This document shows, one piece after another, positions 8,793-14,646 of a DNA stretch of 64,000 nucleotides (its first letter is position 1; every line of letters begins with the position of its first letter). Both the position numbers and the translations under genes were made by a program. This DNA comes from Streptomyces longispororuber. GTDB lineage: Bacteria > Actinomycetota > Actinomycetes > Streptomycetales > Streptomycetaceae. The stretch spans positions 1-64,000 of the forward strand of contig NZ_JAMOLN010000015.1 of assembly GCF_024448165.1 (NCBI RefSeq), read 5' to 3'. Under the pieces are notes generated by a model, which searched no databases, was not told the origin of the DNA, and worked only from the letters and a program-made list of their open reading frames with translations.

Positions 8793-10496
8793 TCAGTCCT
8801 CCGGGAGTTCGACCGGGGCGATCGACTCGTACAGGTCGCCCGGACCCGGGTTGGTCGCGTCGGTCGTCCCGCCGAGGTGGTGCATGACGCCCCACACCGC
8901 GTTCAGCGCCGTCTGCACCGCGCCCTCGGCCCAGCCGGCCGTCCACGAGATGTCGTCGCCGGCGAGGAAGATGCCCCGCCGGTCCTCGGGCAGGCCGTCC
9001 TGCATGAAGTGCGTGAACAGGCGCCGCTGGTAGCGGTAGTGCCCGGGCAGGTTCGCCTTGAACGCGCCCATGAAGTACGGCTCGTTCTCCCAGGACACGG
9101 TCACCGGGTTGCCGATGATGTGCTTGCGGATGTCGACCTTGGGATAGATCTCGCCGAGCGACTTCAGCATCACTTCGAGGCGCTCGTTCGCGGACAGCGG
9201 CAGCCACTTCAGGCTGTCGTCGCACCAGGTGTAGGAGAGGCAGATGACGGCGGGCTTGTCCGGCCCGTCGTCCAGCAGGTAGGTGCCGCGGGTCATCCGG
9301 TCGGTGAGCGTCATCGACATGACGTCGCGCCCGGTGGTCTCGTCCTTGTCGAGCCAGAACGGCCGGTCGACCGGCACGAACAGCTTGCTCGACTCCATGT
9401 AGTGGGTGCGCTCGATCGCCGTCCAGTGGTCGATCGGGAACAGCTCGTCGTCGCACGCCACCTTCGACAGCAGCATCCACGACTGCGCGGTGAAGATCGC
9501 CGCCTTGTACGTGCGGATGTCGCCGTCGGCGTCCGTCACGGTGATGTGGTTCCCGGCGGTCCGGGCGAGCCGGGTCACGGCGGGCCGCGGCTTGCCGGCG
9601 GCGTGCAGCGTGGCGAGGGACGTCCCGTACGCCCAGTTCACGATCTTCTCGGGCGTCCGCTCCCACAGCCGCAGCGGCAGCTGCTGCGAGCCACCGACGA
9701 TGCCGCGGTGGTGGTCGTCGGCCTCGGTGTAGACGACGCGCAGGATCTCCAGGATGGAGTTCGGGAAGTCGGTGTCCCAGCCGCCCGTGCCGAAGCCGAC
9801 CTGGCCGAAGATCTCGCGGTGGCGGAACGACTTGAACGCCTCGGACTCGCAGAGGAACCCGTAGAAGGTCTGGTTGTCGAGCTTCTCGACGAGCTTCGCC
9901 CAGATCTCCCGGATCCGCGGCACGTCGCGCTCGCGCATCGCCTGGTTCATGTCGGAGAAGTCGGCGCCCTCGTCGAGGCACTTGTTCCAGGCGGCGGCGA
10001 CGTCGCGGTAGACCTGCGGCAGGTCGTCGATCGTCTCGGCGTAGTGGGACTCGCCCTTGAGGTCGACGACGGTCGACGGCGTGGCGGCGGAGAGCGGGTT
10101 GGGGAACGGGCTGGTCTCCAGGCCCACCAGGTCGATGTAGTGCTGCAGCGCCGTCGACGAGGGCGGGAAGCGCATGGCGCCCATCTCGGCGGTCAGCCCG
10201 GCCGCGTCCGGCGGGGTCCCGTCGAAGCCGACCGTGCGCAGCCGCCCGCCGATCCGGTCCGCCTCGTACACGACGGGCTTGAGGCCCATCTTCATCAGCT
10301 CGTACGCGGCGACCACGCCGGACAGGCCGCCGCCGATGACGGCGACCTCGGTGCCGTGCTCGGTCGCGGGTATCTGGCCGAGGCCCGCCGGGTGGGCGAG
10401 GAAGTCGTCGTACGCGTAGGGGAAGTCCGGGCCGAACATGGTGATCGGCGGCTGCGCGTCGGTGTGCTGGACGGCGGTGGGCACCGTGGACGTCAT
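8793..10496 (-). CDS. Flavin monoamine oxidase, tryptophan 2-monooxygenase-like
   Basis: FAD-dependent amine oxidase of 567 residues. The Rossmann motif VAVIGGGLSGVVAAYEL is at 51-67, a second FAD contact at GGRLRT, and the C-terminal flavin contact at FLAGDDISWTAGWAEGAVQTALNA. AEMGAMRFPPS, ESSKLFVPVDRPFWL, SYTWCDDSLKWLPL and GAFKANLPGHYRYQ align by eye with plant-pathogen IaaM (about 557 residues), which oxidatively decarboxylates tryptophan to indole-3-acetamide. No amidase (IaaH) gene is adjacent, so whether the product is an auxin precursor or merely a catabolite is open; another amino acid is also possible. GAGGAG lies 10 nt before the ATG. Phased TTGCG sites lie upstream (10629-10686). 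Confidence 0.8.
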   Translation of the reverse strand: MTSTVPTAVQHTDAQPPITMFGPDFPYAYDDFLAHPAGLGQIPATEHGTEVAVIGGGLSGVVAAYELMKMGLKPVVYEADRIGGRLRTVGFDGTPPDAAGLTAEMGAMRFPPSSTALQHYIDLVGLETSPFPNPLSAATPSTVVDLKGESHYAETIDDLPQVYRDVAAAWNKCLDEGADFSDMNQAMRERDVPRIREIWAKLVEKLDNQTFYGFLCESEAFKSFRHREIFGQVGFGTGGWDTDFPNSILEILRVVYTEADDHHRGIVGGSQQLPLRLWERTPEKIVNWAYGTSLATLHAAGKPRPAVTRLARTAGNHITVTDADGDIRTYKAAIFTAQSWMLLSKVACDDELFPIDHWTAIERTHYMESSKLFVPVDRPFWLDKDETTGRDVMSMTLTDRMTRGTYLLDDGPDKPAVICLSYTWCDDSLKWLPLSANERLEVMLKSLGEIYPKVDIRKHIIGNPVTVSWENEPYFMGAFKANLPGHYRYQRRLFTHFMQDGLPEDRRGIFLAGDDISWTAGWAEGAVQTALNAVWGVMHHLGGTTDATNPGPGDLYESIAPVELPED

Positions 10497-10835
10497 GGGG
10501 TGCGGACTCCTCGCGGATACGGAGCGGTCGGGGCAGGGCGGATCGCCGCCGTCACGGGCGTGGGGGACAAGCCGGGGGGATCGGAAAGACGGTACGTTTC
10601 CGCTGGTCGGCGGGACAAGACGGGACCGTTGCGTCTGAGGATGCGATCCGTTGCGCCTGGGGCCCGCGCGGCGGCGATTCGTTGCGCGCTCCGGTGAGCC
10701 CCCGGTAGCAGAGCGTCTCCCCCGCGCGGCGGAGCCGGGTCCCGACCGTGGTCCGACGTGCCGGGGGCGTCCCCCGGGAGATCGTTCTCACACCCGGAAG
10801 GACCGGGCGAGCACGGTGATCACAGGGGGTTTCCC
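10497..10835. other. 339-bp intergenic region between divergent genes
   Basis: Holds the presumed promoter and phased TTGCG half-sites for the flavin oxidase (10589-10686, listed separately). The part nearest the plus-strand secreted-protein gene is GC-rich and shows no clear promoter or hairpin to me. No convincing small gene was seen. Confidence 0.5.
10589..10686 (-). promoter_or_regulatory. Promoter candidate with three phased TTGCG half-sites (flavin oxidase)
   Basis: On the minus strand TACCGT (10589-10594) and TTGTCC (10613-10618) make a -10/-35 pair with 18-bp spacing. Upstream, TTGCG (plus-strand reading) occurs at 10629, 10651 and 10682, spaced 22 and 31 bp, i.e. two and three helical turns. 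The same pattern, with the same 10-bp gap to the -35, lies before the APC permease gene. Binding by the nearby Lrp-type regulator is inferred. Confidence 0.5.
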
Positions 10836-11399
10836 ATGGCACGCACGCGGATCCTGGTGGCGACGGCGATGGCGCTGCTGGTGGCGGCGACCGGCACGGC
10901 GGCGGCGGGCGTCGACCTCGACGGCCCGCACACCGCGCGGCACCAGGCGGCCGCCCGCGAGGCCGCGGCGCTGACCGGCTCGGCCAAGCTGTACCGGCCG
11001 TACGGCGACGACATCACGTTCACGTTCGACGCGCATCTGGCCGCGAAGGACAACATGCGGCCGGAGAAGGCGTACGGCACCTTCTCCTTCAGCCACTACG
11101 TGGACGGCGGGGGCGGCTGGGCGAAGGGCCGGATCGACTGCCTGGTGACCGGCGGGAAGACGGCGGTGATGACGGGGATCGTCACGGACTCGGACACCCC
11201 GCACAAGGGCAGGAGGGTCGGCATCAGCGTCACGGACGACGGCCGGCACGACCGGGTCGGCTACAGCTGGATGAGCGCGGACGCGGACGAGCTGACGGTG
11301 CCGCGCTGCACGAGCCTGCCGCCCTTCGAGACGATCAAGAAGGGCAGCGGCGACTTCCAGGTGCTCCAGTGGTACCCGGAGTACCCGACGCGGCCGTAG
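10836..11399 (+). CDS. Small secreted protein (Repetin-like)
   Basis: A 187-residue exported protein. Residues 1-24 form a signal peptide (basic MARTR, hydrophobic VATAMALLVAATG, Ala-rich cleavage site). The mature part is rich in beta-strand-like segments: ITFTFDAHLAAKD, YGTFSFSHYVDG and a terminal GSGDFQVLQWYP. Similar Streptomyces proteins are often labelled Repetin without experimental support; no catalytic motif is seen. Two Cys residues (IDCLV, PRCTS) could form a disulfide after export. ATG 10836 has GGGGG about 7 nt upstream. It stands alone between divergent promoter DNA and the convergent Lrp gene, whose stop is 3 bp away. Confidence 0.7.
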   Translation: MARTRILVATAMALLVAATGTAAAGVDLDGPHTARHQAAAREAAALTGSAKLYRPYGDDITFTFDAHLAAKDNMRPEKAYGTFSFSHYVDGGGGWAKGRIDCLVTGGKTAVMTGIVTDSDTPHKGRRVGISVTDDGRHDRVGYSWMSADADELTVPRCTSLPPFETIKKGSGDFQVLQWYPEYPTRP

Positions 11400-11402
11400 G
11401 GG

Positions 11403-11855
11403 TCAGGCGGGCGAGCCGGAGGTGAAGCGGCGCATCAGCGGGGAGAGCACCAGCACGGACTTGGTCCGCTCGACGAAGGGCTCCCCGGCGATCCGCTCCA
11501 GGACCCGCTCGAAGTGCCGCATGTCGGAGGCGAAGACCTGCACGAGGGCGTCCGCCTCACCGGTGACGGTGGAGGCGGCCGCGACCTCGGGATACCGCTC
11601 CAGACCTCGCCGGATCGCGTCCGGCGAGGTGTTGCGGCGGCAGTAGATCTCGATGAACCCCTCGGTCTCCCAGCCGAGCGCGGCCGGGTCGACCCGCACG
11701 GTGAAGCCGGTGATCGCCCCGGTGGCCCGCAGCCGGTCCACGCGCCGCTTCACGGCGGGCGCGGAGAGGCCGACGAGCTGCCCGATGTCGGCATAGGAGC
11801 GACGGGCGTCCTCGGCGAGGGCGTGCACGATGCGTTCGTCGAGATCGTTCAGCAA
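11403..11855 (-). CDS. Lrp/AsnC-family transcriptional regulator
   Basis: A 150-residue feast/famine regulator. An N-terminal HTH (residues about 3-50, SYADIGQLVGLSAPAVKRRVDRL) precedes the RAM/AsnC-type ligand domain (about 65-145, with TVTGEADALVQVFASD). Such proteins form octamers and wrap DNA at phased sites in response to an amino acid. The start is uncertain: TTG 11855 or CTG 11852, 10 bp after the APC permease stop, so translation is probably coupled to the permease; no strong ribosome binding site is visible. Its position implies control of the permease operon and possibly of the flavin oxidase, both of which have phased TTGCG repeats upstream. Confidence 0.87.
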   Translation of the reverse strand: MLNDLDERIVHALAEDARRSYADIGQLVGLSAPAVKRRVDRLRATGAITGFTVRVDPAALGWETEGFIEIYCRRNTSPDAIRRGLERYPEVAAASTVTGEADALVQVFASDMRHFERVLERIAGEPFVERTKSVLVLSPLMRRFTSGSPA

Positions 11856-11865
11856 GGCAGGCGGT

Positions 11866-13344
11866 TCACTTCTGGGCTGCGGGGGCGGGGTCCTGCGAGA
11901 GGCGCGAGCGGCGCATCCCGTAGCAGAAGTAGAACACGAGCCCGACGACCATCCAGACACCGAAGACGATCCAGGTGATGGCGGACAGACTGCCCATCAT
12001 CCAGACACAGAACGCGAAACCGAGGACGGGCAGCACCGGCGACAGCGGCACCCGGAAGGTGCGCGGCATGTCGGGTCGGGTCCGGCGCAGCACGATCACG
12101 GCGATGTTGACCAGGGCGAACGCGAAGAGCGTGCCGATGCTGGTGGCGTCGGCCAGCTGGCCCAGCGGGATGGCCGCGGCGAGCACACCGCAGAACAGGG
12201 AGACGATGACGGTGTTGGCGCGCGGCGCGCCCGTCTTCGGGTGCACCTTGGCGAACACCTTGGGCACCAGGCCGTCGCGGGACATCGCGAAGAGGATGCG
12301 GGTCTGGCCGTACAGCACGGTCAGCACGACGGACGCGATGGCGATGACGGCCCCGGCGGCGAGCAGCGTGGCCCAGAACGACTGGCCGGTGACGTCCTTC
12401 ATGATCCCGGCGAGCGCGGCCTCGGAGTCGCTGAAGTGCTGCCACGGGCGGGCGCCGACGGCGACCGCGGCGACGAGCACGTACAGCGCGGTGACGATGA
12501 CGAGCGACAGCATGATGGCGCGCGGCAGGTCGCGCTGGGCGTTCTTCGCCTCCTCACCGGCGGTGGAGGCGGCGTCGAAGCCGATGTAGGAGAAGAACAG
12601 CGTGGCGCCGGCGGCGCTGACACCGGCCATGCCGAGCGGCATGAAGTGCTCGTAGTTGCCGGACTGGAAGCCCTTGAGACCGATGGCGCAGAAGAGGACC
12701 AGCGCGGCTATCTTCACGCACACCATGATCGTGTTGGCGCGCGCGGACTCCTTGGCGCCGCCCAGCAGGAACGCCATGGCGAGCAGCACCACGATGAGCG
12801 CGGGCAGGTTGAAGATGCCGCCGTCGCCGGGCGGCGCGGACAGCGCGTCCGGGATGGTGACGCCGATGGTGCCGTCGAGCAGTTCGTTGAGGTACTCGCC
12901 CCAGCCGACGGCCACGGCGGCGACCGAGACGCCGTACTCCAGCACCAGGCACCAGCCGCACACCCAGGCGACGAGCTCGCCCATCGTTGCGTATGCGTAC
13001 GAGTAGGAGGACCCGGCGACCGGGATCGTGCCGGACAGCTCGGCGTACGAGAGCGCCGAGAAGAGGGCCGTGAGACCCGCGATCACGAAGGACAGCGTGA
13101 CGGCGGGGCCGGCCTTGGGAACGGCCTCGCCGAGCACCACGAAGATGCCGGTGCCGAGCGTGGCACCGATGCTGATCATGGTCAGCTGCCAGAGACCGAG
13201 GGAGCGCCGCAGCGAACCGCCCTCACCCTGGCCGCCCTCCGCGACCAGGCGTTCCACCGGCTTGCGCCGCATGAGACGGGTACCGATTCCCACGGGTGCG
13301 GGGGCGGTCCGGGGGGTGCGCGGGGGTGCGCCGTGATCGAGCAC
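11866..13344 (-). CDS. APC-family amino acid permease (YfnA/CAT-like)
   Basis: A 492-residue cytoplasmic-membrane transporter of the amino acid-polyamine-organocation superfamily with twelve or more hydrophobic segments. ISIGATLGTGIFVVLG (about residue 56) is the first-helix substrate and cation motif, followed by the conserved SYAELSG and YAYATMGELVAWVCGW. The internal GFDAASTAGEEAKN is typical of the cationic-amino-acid transporter branch. GTG 13344 has GAAGGAG seven nt upstream. It is the first gene of a two-gene operon with the Lrp regulator. A promoter candidate with phased TTGCG sites lies at 13457-13573. Substrate amino acid unknown. Confidence 0.88.
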   Translation of the reverse strand: MLDHGAPPRTPRTAPAPVGIGTRLMRRKPVERLVAEGGQGEGGSLRRSLGLWQLTMISIGATLGTGIFVVLGEAVPKAGPAVTLSFVIAGLTALFSALSYAELSGTIPVAGSSYSYAYATMGELVAWVCGWCLVLEYGVSVAAVAVGWGEYLNELLDGTIGVTIPDALSAPPGDGGIFNLPALIVVLLAMAFLLGGAKESARANTIMVCVKIAALVLFCAIGLKGFQSGNYEHFMPLGMAGVSAAGATLFFSYIGFDAASTAGEEAKNAQRDLPRAIMLSLVIVTALYVLVAAVAVGARPWQHFSDSEAALAGIMKDVTGQSFWATLLAAGAVIAIASVVLTVLYGQTRILFAMSRDGLVPKVFAKVHPKTGAPRANTVIVSLFCGVLAAAIPLGQLADATSIGTLFAFALVNIAVIVLRRTRPDMPRTFRVPLSPVLPVLGFAFCVWMMGSLSAITWIVFGVWMVVGLVFYFCYGMRRSRLSQDPAPAAQK

Positions 13345-13456
13345 GGGCCGGCTCCTTCATCGCTGCCAGTTGAGGCTGCGGGGAACGCGGCGGCCCACGC
13401 CCTGACCGGGGGACCGCCGAGCAGGCCGTCCCCCGCCACGCCACGTACAGCGGATG

Positions 13457-13573
13457 ACTCTAAGGGACGCAGCTTCCCAGCTGTAATGCAGCAACCTTGC
13501 GCACCGTCGCACGATCGTTGCGCGTATCCGCACGAGGCGCATGTTCATTGCGGTGCCCGTTTCGTCTGTTGCG
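13457..13573 (-). promoter_or_regulatory. Promoter candidate with four phased TTGCG half-sites (APC permease)
   Basis: On the minus strand TAGAGT (13457-13462) and the weak TTACAG (13481-13486) give an 18-bp spaced promoter candidate. TTGCG in plus-strand reading occurs at 13497, 13518, 13548 and 13569, spaced 21, 30 and 21 bp, so all lie on one helix face. The first site is 10 bp upstream of the -35, the same distance as before the flavin oxidase. This is the layout expected for an Lrp-type activator; it is inferred by eye. Confidence 0.5.
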
Positions 13574-13761: not shown

Positions 13762-14646
13762 GTGAGTATCAGCGAGAGCGACATCCGCGGTCTGCTGCTG
13801 GAGGCACTGCGGGACCAGGAGGAGCAGATCGCCGCCCGGTGGACGGCGCTCCAACTGGAACAGGCGGCACTGGGCACCGACATGAGCGAGAGCGAGCTGC
13901 GCGAGGAGGCGGTGCTGCTCGTCGACGCGCTCACCGAGGCACTGGCCAGCGACACTCCGGTGGGACGTCTGGTGACCTCGCACCACAACCTGCGCACGAC
14001 GGTCACCGAGCTGTCGCTGCGCCGGGTGCGGGCGGGTGCCACCCCCACCGACACCTCGCTGGCGGTGCTCTCCCTCAAGGAGGCGCTGCTCGCGGCCGTG
14101 CAGCACACCACGCGGGACATGGGTGAGCTGTTCGCCGCGGCGAACTTCGTCAACCGGATGCTGGACGCGGCGGGCGCGCTCTCCTTCGAGACGTACGTCG
14201 AGGGGCGCGAGGAGATCATCCAGCGGCAGAGCCGTCAGCTGATGGAACTGTCCACGCCCGTCGTGCGGTTGTGGAAGCACGTCCTGGCCGTCCCGCTCAT
14301 CGGCACCCTGGACACGGCACGCACCCAGATCGTCATGGAGTCGCTGCTGCAGGCGATCCAGGACGACGAGGCCAAGGTCGCCATCATCGACATCACCGGT
14401 GTGCTGACCGTCGACACGGCGGTCGCCCAACACCTGATGCACACCGTCAACGCGGTCCGGCTGATGGGCGCGGACTGTGTCATCAGCGGCATCCGTCCGC
14501 CCATCGCCCAGACCATCGCCCAGTTGGGGATCGACCTGTCCACCATCCTGACCCGTGCCACCCTGGCCGACGCCCTGGCCGCGGCGGTCAAGCTCACGGA
14601 CCAGCCCGCCGTCGGGTTCGCCGTCACCGGCTCGGCACCGCGGTGA
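13762..14646 (+). CDS. rsbR: RsbR-type stressosome scaffold/sensor (STAS)
   Basis: A 294-residue stressosome protein. The N-terminal half (about 1-150) is a helical RsbRD/non-haem-globin-like sensor region with no haem ligand pattern I recognise. The C-terminal STAS domain (about 170-275) carries DITGVLTVDT and GIRPPIAQT; Thr219 and Thr251 correspond to the two threonines that RsbT phosphorylates in Bacillus RsbRA, so the switch residues are intact. GTG 13762 is preceded by GAGAGGGG. The next start overlaps its stop (GTGA). Role: with RsbS it holds RsbT until stress, then is phosphorylated. It is the first gene of a seven-gene module behind a sigma-B-type promoter. Confidence 0.88.
   Translation: MSISESDIRGLLLEALRDQEEQIAARWTALQLEQAALGTDMSESELREEAVLLVDALTEALASDTPVGRLVTSHHNLRTTVTELSLRRVRAGATPTDTSLAVLSLKEALLAAVQHTTRDMGELFAAANFVNRMLDAAGALSFETYVEGREEIIQRQSRQLMELSTPVVRLWKHVLAVPLIGTLDTARTQIVMESLLQAIQDDEAKVAIIDITGVLTVDTAVAQHLMHTVNAVRLMGADCVISGIRPPIAQTIAQLGIDLSTILTRATLADALAAAVKLTDQPAVGFAVTGSAPR

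What the first reader, a model, noticed from the sequence alone, without database searches (positions are those of the whole stretch)
10589..13573. Shared, helically phased TTGCG half-sites before the flavin amine oxidase and the APC-permease/Lrp operon
TTGCG occurs at 10629, 10651, 10682 (spacing 22, 31) and at 13497, 13518, 13548, 13569 (spacing 21, 30, 21). At about 70 percent GC I would expect a given strand to show TTGCG only about once per kilobase. In both cases the first site lies 10 bp upstream of a candidate -35 with an 18-bp spaced -10, and both genes point the same way. Lrp proteins wrap DNA at such phased sites, and an Lrp gene is the second gene of the permease operon. The promoter picks were made by eye, so the matching geometry is partly a choice; the phasing is not.
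Basis: partly seen in the sequence, partly recalled or inferred. Interest (0 to 1): 0.72.

Follow-up and report, generated by a model that had tools for sequence, protein, structure and literature searches.

The report
Phased Lrp operators controlling amino-acid breakdown
Two genes for taking up and breaking down an amino acid in a soil bacterium each carry the same evenly spaced row of short DNA tags in front of them, and the row is kept in nearly all relatives examined, which points to a shared switch operated by the neighbouring Lrp-type regulator.

Summary
Both TTGCG arrays lie where stated: 22/31 bp spacing before the amine oxidase, 21/30/21 before the permease-lrp operon. They are the only phased triples in the 10.5-Mb genome. 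The oxidase-type array is exact in 94 of 100 fetched same-genus relatives, weakened or 1-bp-shifted in 5, absent in 1, and present in 80 of 80 named loci (79 titled Streptomyces; overlapping set). In 96 of 100 and 77 of 80 an amidase gene lies between array and oxidase. It is lost in the window lineage, leaving the array directly at the oxidase. The oxidase resembles amino-acid 2-monooxygenases. Lrp and oxidase are present or absent together in 198 of 199 genomes. A paralogous Lrp before arginine/ornithine genes has the same promoter-array geometry with NTGCG boxes in 26 of 29 loci not chosen for it. Best reading: operators of the adjacent Lrp, probably activating. Binding is not shown. A probable ortholog, SCAB_Lrp2, has been studied, but its published site is another, unconserved sequence and its only reported effector is tryptophan.

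The parts
8793..10496 (-).
   Evidence: Pfam Amino_oxidase E 1e-50; best solved relative 3we0 L-amino acid oxidase/monooxygenase E 5e-233, next 4iv9 tryptophan 2-monooxygenase E 2e-58
10589..10594 (-). -10 element of the oxidase promoter (TACCGT on the gene strand), predicted
   Evidence: Sequence; a GTAC-containing element starting at -39 or -38 in 95 of 95 arrays
10613..10618 (-). -35 element (TTGTCC on the gene strand), predicted
   Evidence: GGACAAG at -16 from box 1 in 84 of 95 arrays
10629..10633 (+). Oxidase array box 1 (TTGCG; CGCAA on the gene strand)
10651..10655 (+). Oxidase array box 2, 22 bp from box 1
10682..10686 (+). Oxidase array box 3, 31 bp from box 2
11403..11855 (-). lrp: Lrp/AsnC-family regulator, 150 aa with the TTG start at 11855, second gene of the permease operon (10 bp after the permease)
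   Evidence: Pfam HTH_AsnC-type and AsnC_trans_reg; 89% identical to the protein beside the published OP1 site in G575
11866..13344 (-). APC-superfamily amino-acid permease, 492 aa
   Evidence: TIGR00909 amino acid transporter 612 bits, above its cut-off of 556.8
13457..13462 (-). -10 element of the permease promoter (TAGAGT on the gene strand), predicted
   Evidence: Sequence; CTA at -37 or -36 in 23 of 24 arrays
13481..13486 (-). -35 element (TTACAG on the gene strand), predicted
   Evidence: TAATGC/TAACGC at -13 in 23 of 24 arrays
13487..13501 (+). Permease array box 1 with left arm: TGCAG-N5-TTGCG
   Evidence: Left arm TGCAG in 17 of 24 arrays
13508..13522 (+). Permease array box 2 with left arm: CGCAC-N5-TTGCG (inverted repeat, 5-5-5)
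   Evidence: TTGCG at 21 in 24 of 24 arrays
13548..13552 (+). Permease array box 3, 30 bp from box 2
   Evidence: TTGCG in 20 and TTGCA in 4 of 24 arrays
13569..13573 (+). Permease array box 4, 21 bp from box 3; kept in a minority
   Evidence: TTGCG in 5 and TTGCA in 2 of 24 arrays, one of the 24 (L042) cut off before this box

Best explanation
The two arrays are operators of the Lrp/AsnC-family protein encoded at 11403-11855. Dimers of it occupy boxes on one face of the helix, two and three turns apart, just upstream of the -35 element. The resulting bent or wrapped complex activates the promoter when a substrate amino acid is plentiful. It drives the permease-lrp operon (uptake plus feedback) and the amino-acid monooxygenase operon, which in most relatives also encodes an amidase that would cleave the amide product. 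Shown: arrays, phasing, promoter geometry, conservation, linkage and co-occurrence. Inferred: binding by this Lrp, wrapping, activation, and a basic amino acid (arginine or lysine) as substrate and signal.
For: Only two matches in the own genome, none reversed. Exact triple upstream of the oxidase in 94 of 100 fetched relatives; 5 of the other 6 keep a weakened or 1-bp-shifted array. The array moves with the operon: among loci with both a strict array and an amidase match, 167 of 168 have the array within 350 bp beyond the amidase's 5' end, and where the amidase is missing (L039, L056, L119, L275, L292, L301) it lies 130-320 bp from the oxidase. Lrp ortholog and oxidase are both present in 191, both absent in 7 and discordant in 1 of 199 genomes. 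In other families of the class, 6 of 8 loci with an Lrp relative keep two boxes at 22 or 31 bp and 0 of 7 without one do. The paralogous Lrp before dimethylargininase and ornithine aminotransferase has ACAAG, 9 bp, box, 21, box in 28 of 31 loci and a third NTGCG box at 31 in 26 of 31; without the two loci known beforehand, 26 and 24 of 29. Lrp proteins use centre spacings of two or three helical turns on one face (PMC2995911, passages).
Against: No binding or expression data. SCAB_Lrp2, the ortholog by my assignment, was reported to bind an 18-bp site, OP1, that contains no TTGCG; only tryptophan changed its binding among the amino acids tested; [quoted passage not shown] Oxidase boxes 1 and 2 lack a good left arm. 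G028 (1,300 contigs) has the array and the oxidase but no Lrp ortholog at the level of the others. L110 (G012) has no array at the oxidase. Four genomes with both genes have no strict triple (G010, G113, G135, G145): G010, G135 and G145 keep one phased pair before the amidase, G113 could not be assessed because its contig starts at the gene. G079 has a triple but neither gene; that match was not examined. In the genus scan the reversed control also matched, about 62 times in 49 of 199 genomes by my hand count of the table, so a match there is not proof for a single genome. Only 5 of 59 lrp genes have any box in the 150 bp before them, one of these (L105) an anchoring artefact, so lrp itself would be array-controlled only through the permease promoter. 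Lrp and oxidase are neighbours, so joint loss could be one deletion.
Confidence: 0.8

Rival explanations
1. The arrays are real operators, but of another regulator; Lrp acts at the published OP1-type site near its own gene.
For: OP1 was identified for SCAB_Lrp2 by BLAST comparison and EMSA with a mutated probe (PMC11609053). In G575 OP1 lies at the 3' end of the permease gene, 23 bases before the lrp start used here, about 1.6 kb from the array.
Against: OP1 is not conserved: 0 mismatches only in G575; in the other 58 loci (window included) the best match in the 150 bp before lrp has on average 6.6 of 18 mismatches, against 7.2 after shuffling. An exact OP1 is in 8 of 392 genomes, and only in G575 was this lrp found within the 1.5 kb on either side that was held. 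The paralogous Lrp carries the same array geometry, which another regulator would not readily explain.
Confidence: 0.12
2. Lrp binds the arrays but represses rather than activates.
For: [quoted passage not shown] Many Lrp proteins do both (established knowledge).
Against: The boxes lie upstream of the -35 (first box 10 bp away), the usual place for an activator, and both promoters have elements some way from consensus.
Confidence: 0.25
3. The pathway is tryptophan to indole-acetamide to indole-acetic acid rather than basic amino acid breakdown.
For: Tryptophan is the reported effector of SCAB_Lrp2; a tryptophan 2-monooxygenase is the second best solved relative; an amidase precedes the oxidase in most relatives.
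Against: The oxidase matches an L-amino acid oxidase/monooxygenase far better (778 against 202 bits); the paralogous Lrp sits with dimethylargininase and ornithine aminotransferase.
Confidence: 0.15
4. The repeats are chance or coding remnants.
For: Short motif, eye-picked; TTGCG pairs alone are not rarer than control.
Against: Conservation with exact spacing, 80 of 80 loci against 0 controls; 0 of 20,000 shuffles.
Confidence: 0.01

Closest known systems
SCAB_Lrp2 (SCAB_75421) of Streptomyces scabies, PMC11609053 (Results 2.1-2.4 and passages read)
   Same: Very probably the ortholog: in G575 (one contig of 10,148,695 bases, the size I recall for S. scabies 87.22) the published OP1 sequence lies beside a 150-aa Lrp 89% identical to the window's; 150 aa is also the published length.
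   Different: The paper places its site at OP1 and its targets at its own gene and txtR. The main text held does not contain TTGC or the word permease; its figures are not held, so a gene map there was not seen.
Ss-LrpB of Sulfolobus solfataricus (PMC4046817, PMC2995911, passages only)
   Same: Binds multiple regularly spaced sites with a 15-bp palindromic consensus built on TTGCA/TGCAA; three dimers with about 100 bp of wrapped DNA; activates a neighbouring enzyme operon and permease genes.
   Different: Archaeal, with palindromic sites TTGCA...TGCAA; here mostly one-sided boxes, with the arms in the opposite order (CGCAN-N5-TTGCG) where both are seen.
DavB/DavA lysine 2-monooxygenase and aminovaleramidase (PMC4980613, search listing); arginine monooxygenase and 4-guanidinobutyramide hydrolase of azalomycin producers (PMC5082578, passages)
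   Same: Flavin amino-acid 2-monooxygenase paired with an amidase (gene pair seen in relatives here).
   Different: Substrate not tested here; the window genome has lost the adjacent amidase. PMC5082578 states that S. lividans has no arginine monooxygenase; whether S. lividans carries this ortholog was not tested.
M. tuberculosis Rv2324 beside dimethylargininase/rocD genes (recalled, no call)
   Same: Would correspond to the paralogous Lrp-ddaH-rocD locus found here.

Membership tests
Lrp/AsnC regulator family (the protein) | N-terminal AsnC-type helix-turn-helix and C-terminal ligand-binding domain | tested here: met
   PF13404 E 5e-16 and PF01037 E 7.8e-15, both above cut-off; chains named AsnC (2cg4) and leucine-responsive regulatory protein (2gqq) among PDB relatives
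Lrp-type operator arrays | Several sites spaced two or three helical turns on one face | tested here: met
   21-22 and 30-31 bp, conserved; spacing rule from PMC2995911
Lrp-type operator arrays | About 15-bp dyad at each site | tested here: inconclusive
   YGCAN-N5-TTGCG at permease site 1 and, in part of the arrays, site 2; CGCAG-N5-CTGCG common in the paralog; oxidase sites 1 and 2 lack a left arm
Lrp-type operator arrays | Bound by Lrp, response to an amino acid | not testable with these tools
   Needs footprint or EMSA
SCAB_Lrp2 orthology | Same gene beside the published OP1 sequence | tested here: met
   OP1 at L359:1501-1518, lrp 1542-1994, 89% identity; strain identity of G575 inferred, not named by a tool
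Amino-acid 2-monooxygenase (DavB-like) | Homology to a solved L-amino acid oxidase/monooxygenase | tested here: met
   E 5e-233 over residues 12-564
Amino-acid 2-monooxygenase (DavB-like) | Partner amidase in the operon | tested here: not met
   Absent in the window (best own-genome match 45%), though present in 96 of 100 fetched relatives and 77 of 80 named loci
Amino-acid 2-monooxygenase (DavB-like) | Substrate and oxygenase activity | not testable with these tools
   Needs an enzyme assay

The most novel reading that the evidence does not exclude
Streptomyces carry a two-member Lrp subfamily whose operators obey one rigid code: -10, about 18 bp, -35, 10 bp, box, 21-22 bp, box, 30-31 bp, box. 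It sets a defined multi-dimer activating wrap at basic amino-acid breakdown genes, with TTGCG or CTGCG helping to tell the paralogs apart. The published OP1 site of SCAB_Lrp2 is then not the main natural target.
Probability: 0.45. Interest if true: 0.65.

Novelty: new member of a known kind. Interest (0 to 1): 0.55.

Why it matters
It gives a conserved, testable regulon to an Lrp whose probable ortholog has been studied for its effect on secondary metabolism without these targets. It also offers a natural series of phased promoters (two paralogs, two spacings, gene loss beside a kept promoter) for asking how Lrp phasing and wrapping control transcription, and it links amino-acid uptake and breakdown in antibiotic producers.

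Tried and rejected
The 187-aa plus-strand gene (10836-11399) and the RsbRD/STAS gene (13762-14646) as the real targets: set aside because in relatives the arrays stay with the amidase/oxidase and the permease; the opposite neighbours were looked at in one relative only (L040) and not counted. Extra targets in the own genome: none with the triple. The looser pair pattern TTGCG-N14-18-TTGCG is uninformative: 49 matches against 69 for the reversed control. OP1 as a conserved site: not conserved. A change of the oxidase after amidase loss: no sign at one position; the stretch aligned to a residue I recall as important reads the same in the amidase-less loci L010, L275, L292, L301 and in all 93 of 110 loci where the motif was found. 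The paralog scored by the strict TTGCR triple gave only 2 of 31, both known beforehand; its boxes are mostly CTGCG. Literature: in ten searches I saw no listing that names these arrays; the library holds only open-licence papers, and I opened seven papers, all in passages except the Results of PMC11609053 (first part).
Full report
What is there. The window is from a 10.5-Mb genome in 442 contigs. No tool names it; of 80 named loci nearest in oxidase sequence, 79 are titled Streptomyces and one Microtetraspora glauca (L285), so I call the genus Streptomyces. On the minus strand lie an amino-acid oxidase gene (8793-10496) and an operon of an APC permease (11866-13344) and an Lrp/AsnC regulator (11403-11855).

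Chance. The triple TTGCR-N16-17-TTGCR-N25-26-TTGCR occurs twice in the own genome, both here, and the reversed pattern never. Shuffling each intergenic region 20,000 times gave no phased TTGCG triple. A single pair of TTGCG 19-23 bp apart is no rarer than its control (49 against 69), so it is the triple that is informative. Across 199 genus genomes 190 hold a triple; the reversed control matched about 62 times in 49 of them by my hand count, so that scan alone proves nothing for one genome and the located arrays below carry the argument.

Conservation. I fetched the upstream region of the oxidase from 100 of the 191 genus genomes that matched it at E <= 1e-100. 94 of 100 match the strict 22/31 triple. 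Of the other six, L123 and L129 have 21/31, L073, L093 and L113 keep boxes 1 and 2 with a third box of TTGTT or TTGTG, and L110 has none. In 80 of 80 named loci the array is present, with 0 matches of reversed or opposite-strand patterns in 1,074,579 bases. The permease-type array (21/30) matched in 23 of the 27 relatives whose permease start was placed. Of the four misses, L049 and L078 are cut by the end of the stretch, L072 lacks the third box, and L113 was mis-anchored (the same genome, re-fetched as L262, has the array). In the named set it was found within the DNA held upstream, at most 6 kb, in 46 of 80.

The array moves with the operon. An amidase of the carbon-nitrogen hydrolase kind lies within 1.5 kb upstream of the oxidase in 96 of 100 fetched relatives and 77 of 80 named loci. 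Where both a strict array and the amidase are found, the array begins within 350 bp beyond the amidase match in 167 of 168 and at 456 bp in L345. The loci without it are L039, L056, L110, L119 and the named L275, L292, L301. Six of these seven have the array 130-320 bp from the oxidase; L110 has none. In G000 (the window), G103, G059 and G094 the best remaining amidase in the genome is at most 45% identical. That the promoter was kept while the first gene was lost suggests that it serves the oxidase.

What the genes do. The oxidase's best solved relative is an L-amino acid oxidase/monooxygenase (778 bits), far ahead of tryptophan 2-monooxygenase (202 bits). With the amidase this resembles the lysine (DavB/DavA; PMC4980613, search listing) or arginine (PMC5082578, passages) monooxygenase-amidase pairs. 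Substrate is not settled: PMC5082578 says S. lividans lacks arginine monooxygenase, and tryptophan is the reported effector of the probable Lrp ortholog. I lean to a basic amino acid, mainly because of the paralog described below.

Who binds. Evidence for the adjacent Lrp: (1) it is encoded in one of the two array-bearing operons. (2) Among 199 genomes the Lrp ortholog and the oxidase are both present in 191, both absent in 7 and discordant in 1 (G028). Here I counted G073's partial gene at a contig edge as present, and I treated the four matches at 1e-44 to 1e-47 (G028, G120, G121, G186) as paralogs, because the other 191 were at about 1e-70 or better. G050 was not re-searched. Linkage makes joint loss easier, so this is weaker than it looks. 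(3) Outside the genus, 17 of the 296 class genomes drawn encode the oxidase. Nine, of one family, also have an Lrp relative at 61-64% identity; of the eight with upstream sequence, six keep two boxes at 22 or 31 bp before the amidase. None of seven genomes without an Lrp relative has any such pair in the 5.9-9.3 kb fetched, nor does G437, whose relative is 53% identical and on another contig. Members of one family are not independent. (4) A paralogous Lrp, 54-56% identical, lies before dimethylargininase and ornithine aminotransferase genes, which pass the cut-offs of NF045659 and TIGR01885. It is in 72 of 150 genomes searched at E <= 1e-55, not in the window's own. I examined 31 loci: the 30 best protein matches plus L365. 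Two (L365, and L366, the same genome as L364) were known beforehand to hold a triple. 28 of 31 have ACAAG, 9 bp, NTGCG, 21 bp, NTGCG, and 26 of 31 a third NTGCG at 31 bp; without the two, 26 and 24 of 29. L382, L388 and L390 do not match. The second box is CTGCG in 24 and TTGCG in 3 of the 28. This is the strongest argument: two Lrp paralogs, two kinds of operon, one architecture.

The published ortholog. PMC11609053 (Results 2.1-2.4 read; other passages) studied SCAB_Lrp2, 150 aa, and reported by BLAST and EMSA an 18-bp site, OP1, in its own promoter region, with only tryptophan strengthening binding; [quoted passage not shown] I searched for OP1 in 392 genus genomes: 8 have it exactly, and only in G575 was this lrp found in the 1.5 kb held on either side; there OP1 lies at the 3' end of the permease gene, 23 bases before the lrp start. 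G575's contig is 10,148,695 bases, the size I recall for S. scabies 87.22. So SCAB_Lrp2 is very probably the ortholog. The same locus has a four-box 21/30/21 permease array and the oxidase-type array. OP1 itself is not conserved. The paper's main text contains neither TTGC nor permease. Either the published site is secondary, or this Lrp recognises something other than the arrays; a footprint decides.

Mechanism. The boxes lie upstream of the -35. Relative to a start assumed about 7 bp after the -10, the oxidase boxes centre near -49, -71 and -102. Spacings of 21-22 and 30-31 bp are two and three helical turns, which fits the rule reported for Lrp proteins (PMC2995911). Ss-LrpB, which wraps DNA with three dimers and activates a neighbouring enzyme operon and permease genes, is the nearest worked analogue (PMC4046817). 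Activation is inferred from position only.

Verdict. As a kind it is known (an Lrp-type local regulator of amino-acid uptake and breakdown). What appears new, within the ten searches made, is the conserved array, its shared code across two Lrp paralogs, and its mismatch with the published site.

Noticed in passing
L364:3472-6119 (G120), L365 (G180), L366-L395: Paralogous Lrp followed by dimethylargininase and, where looked at (L364), ornithine aminotransferase genes, with the same promoter-array geometry but mostly CTGCG boxes; no match in the window genome at E <= 1e-55.
   Followed up: partly
window 10497-10835: The amidase gene found between array and oxidase in most relatives is missing here and in G103, G059, G094; the nearest amidase in the own genome is 45% identical (C402).
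   Followed up: yes
window 8793-10496: The residue aligned with Cys254 of the solved oxidase/monooxygenase (number and role recalled) is alanine here and in all 93 of 110 loci where the motif was found.
   Followed up: partly
L247 (G481), L248 (G096): Second, 62-64% identical copies of the oxidase in two genomes, with no phased TTGC pair in the 9.3 kb fetched.
   Followed up: no
window 10836-11399: A 187-aa plus-strand protein with no Pfam or NCBIfam match at E <= 0.001 lies between the oxidase array and lrp.
   Followed up: no
L359:1501-1518: The published SCAB_Lrp2 site OP1 lies inside the 3' end of the permease gene and is not conserved in relatives.
   Followed up: yes
window 13762-14646: An RsbRD/STAS-type gene, perhaps the start of a stress-response regulator module, diverges from the permease promoter.
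   Followed up: no
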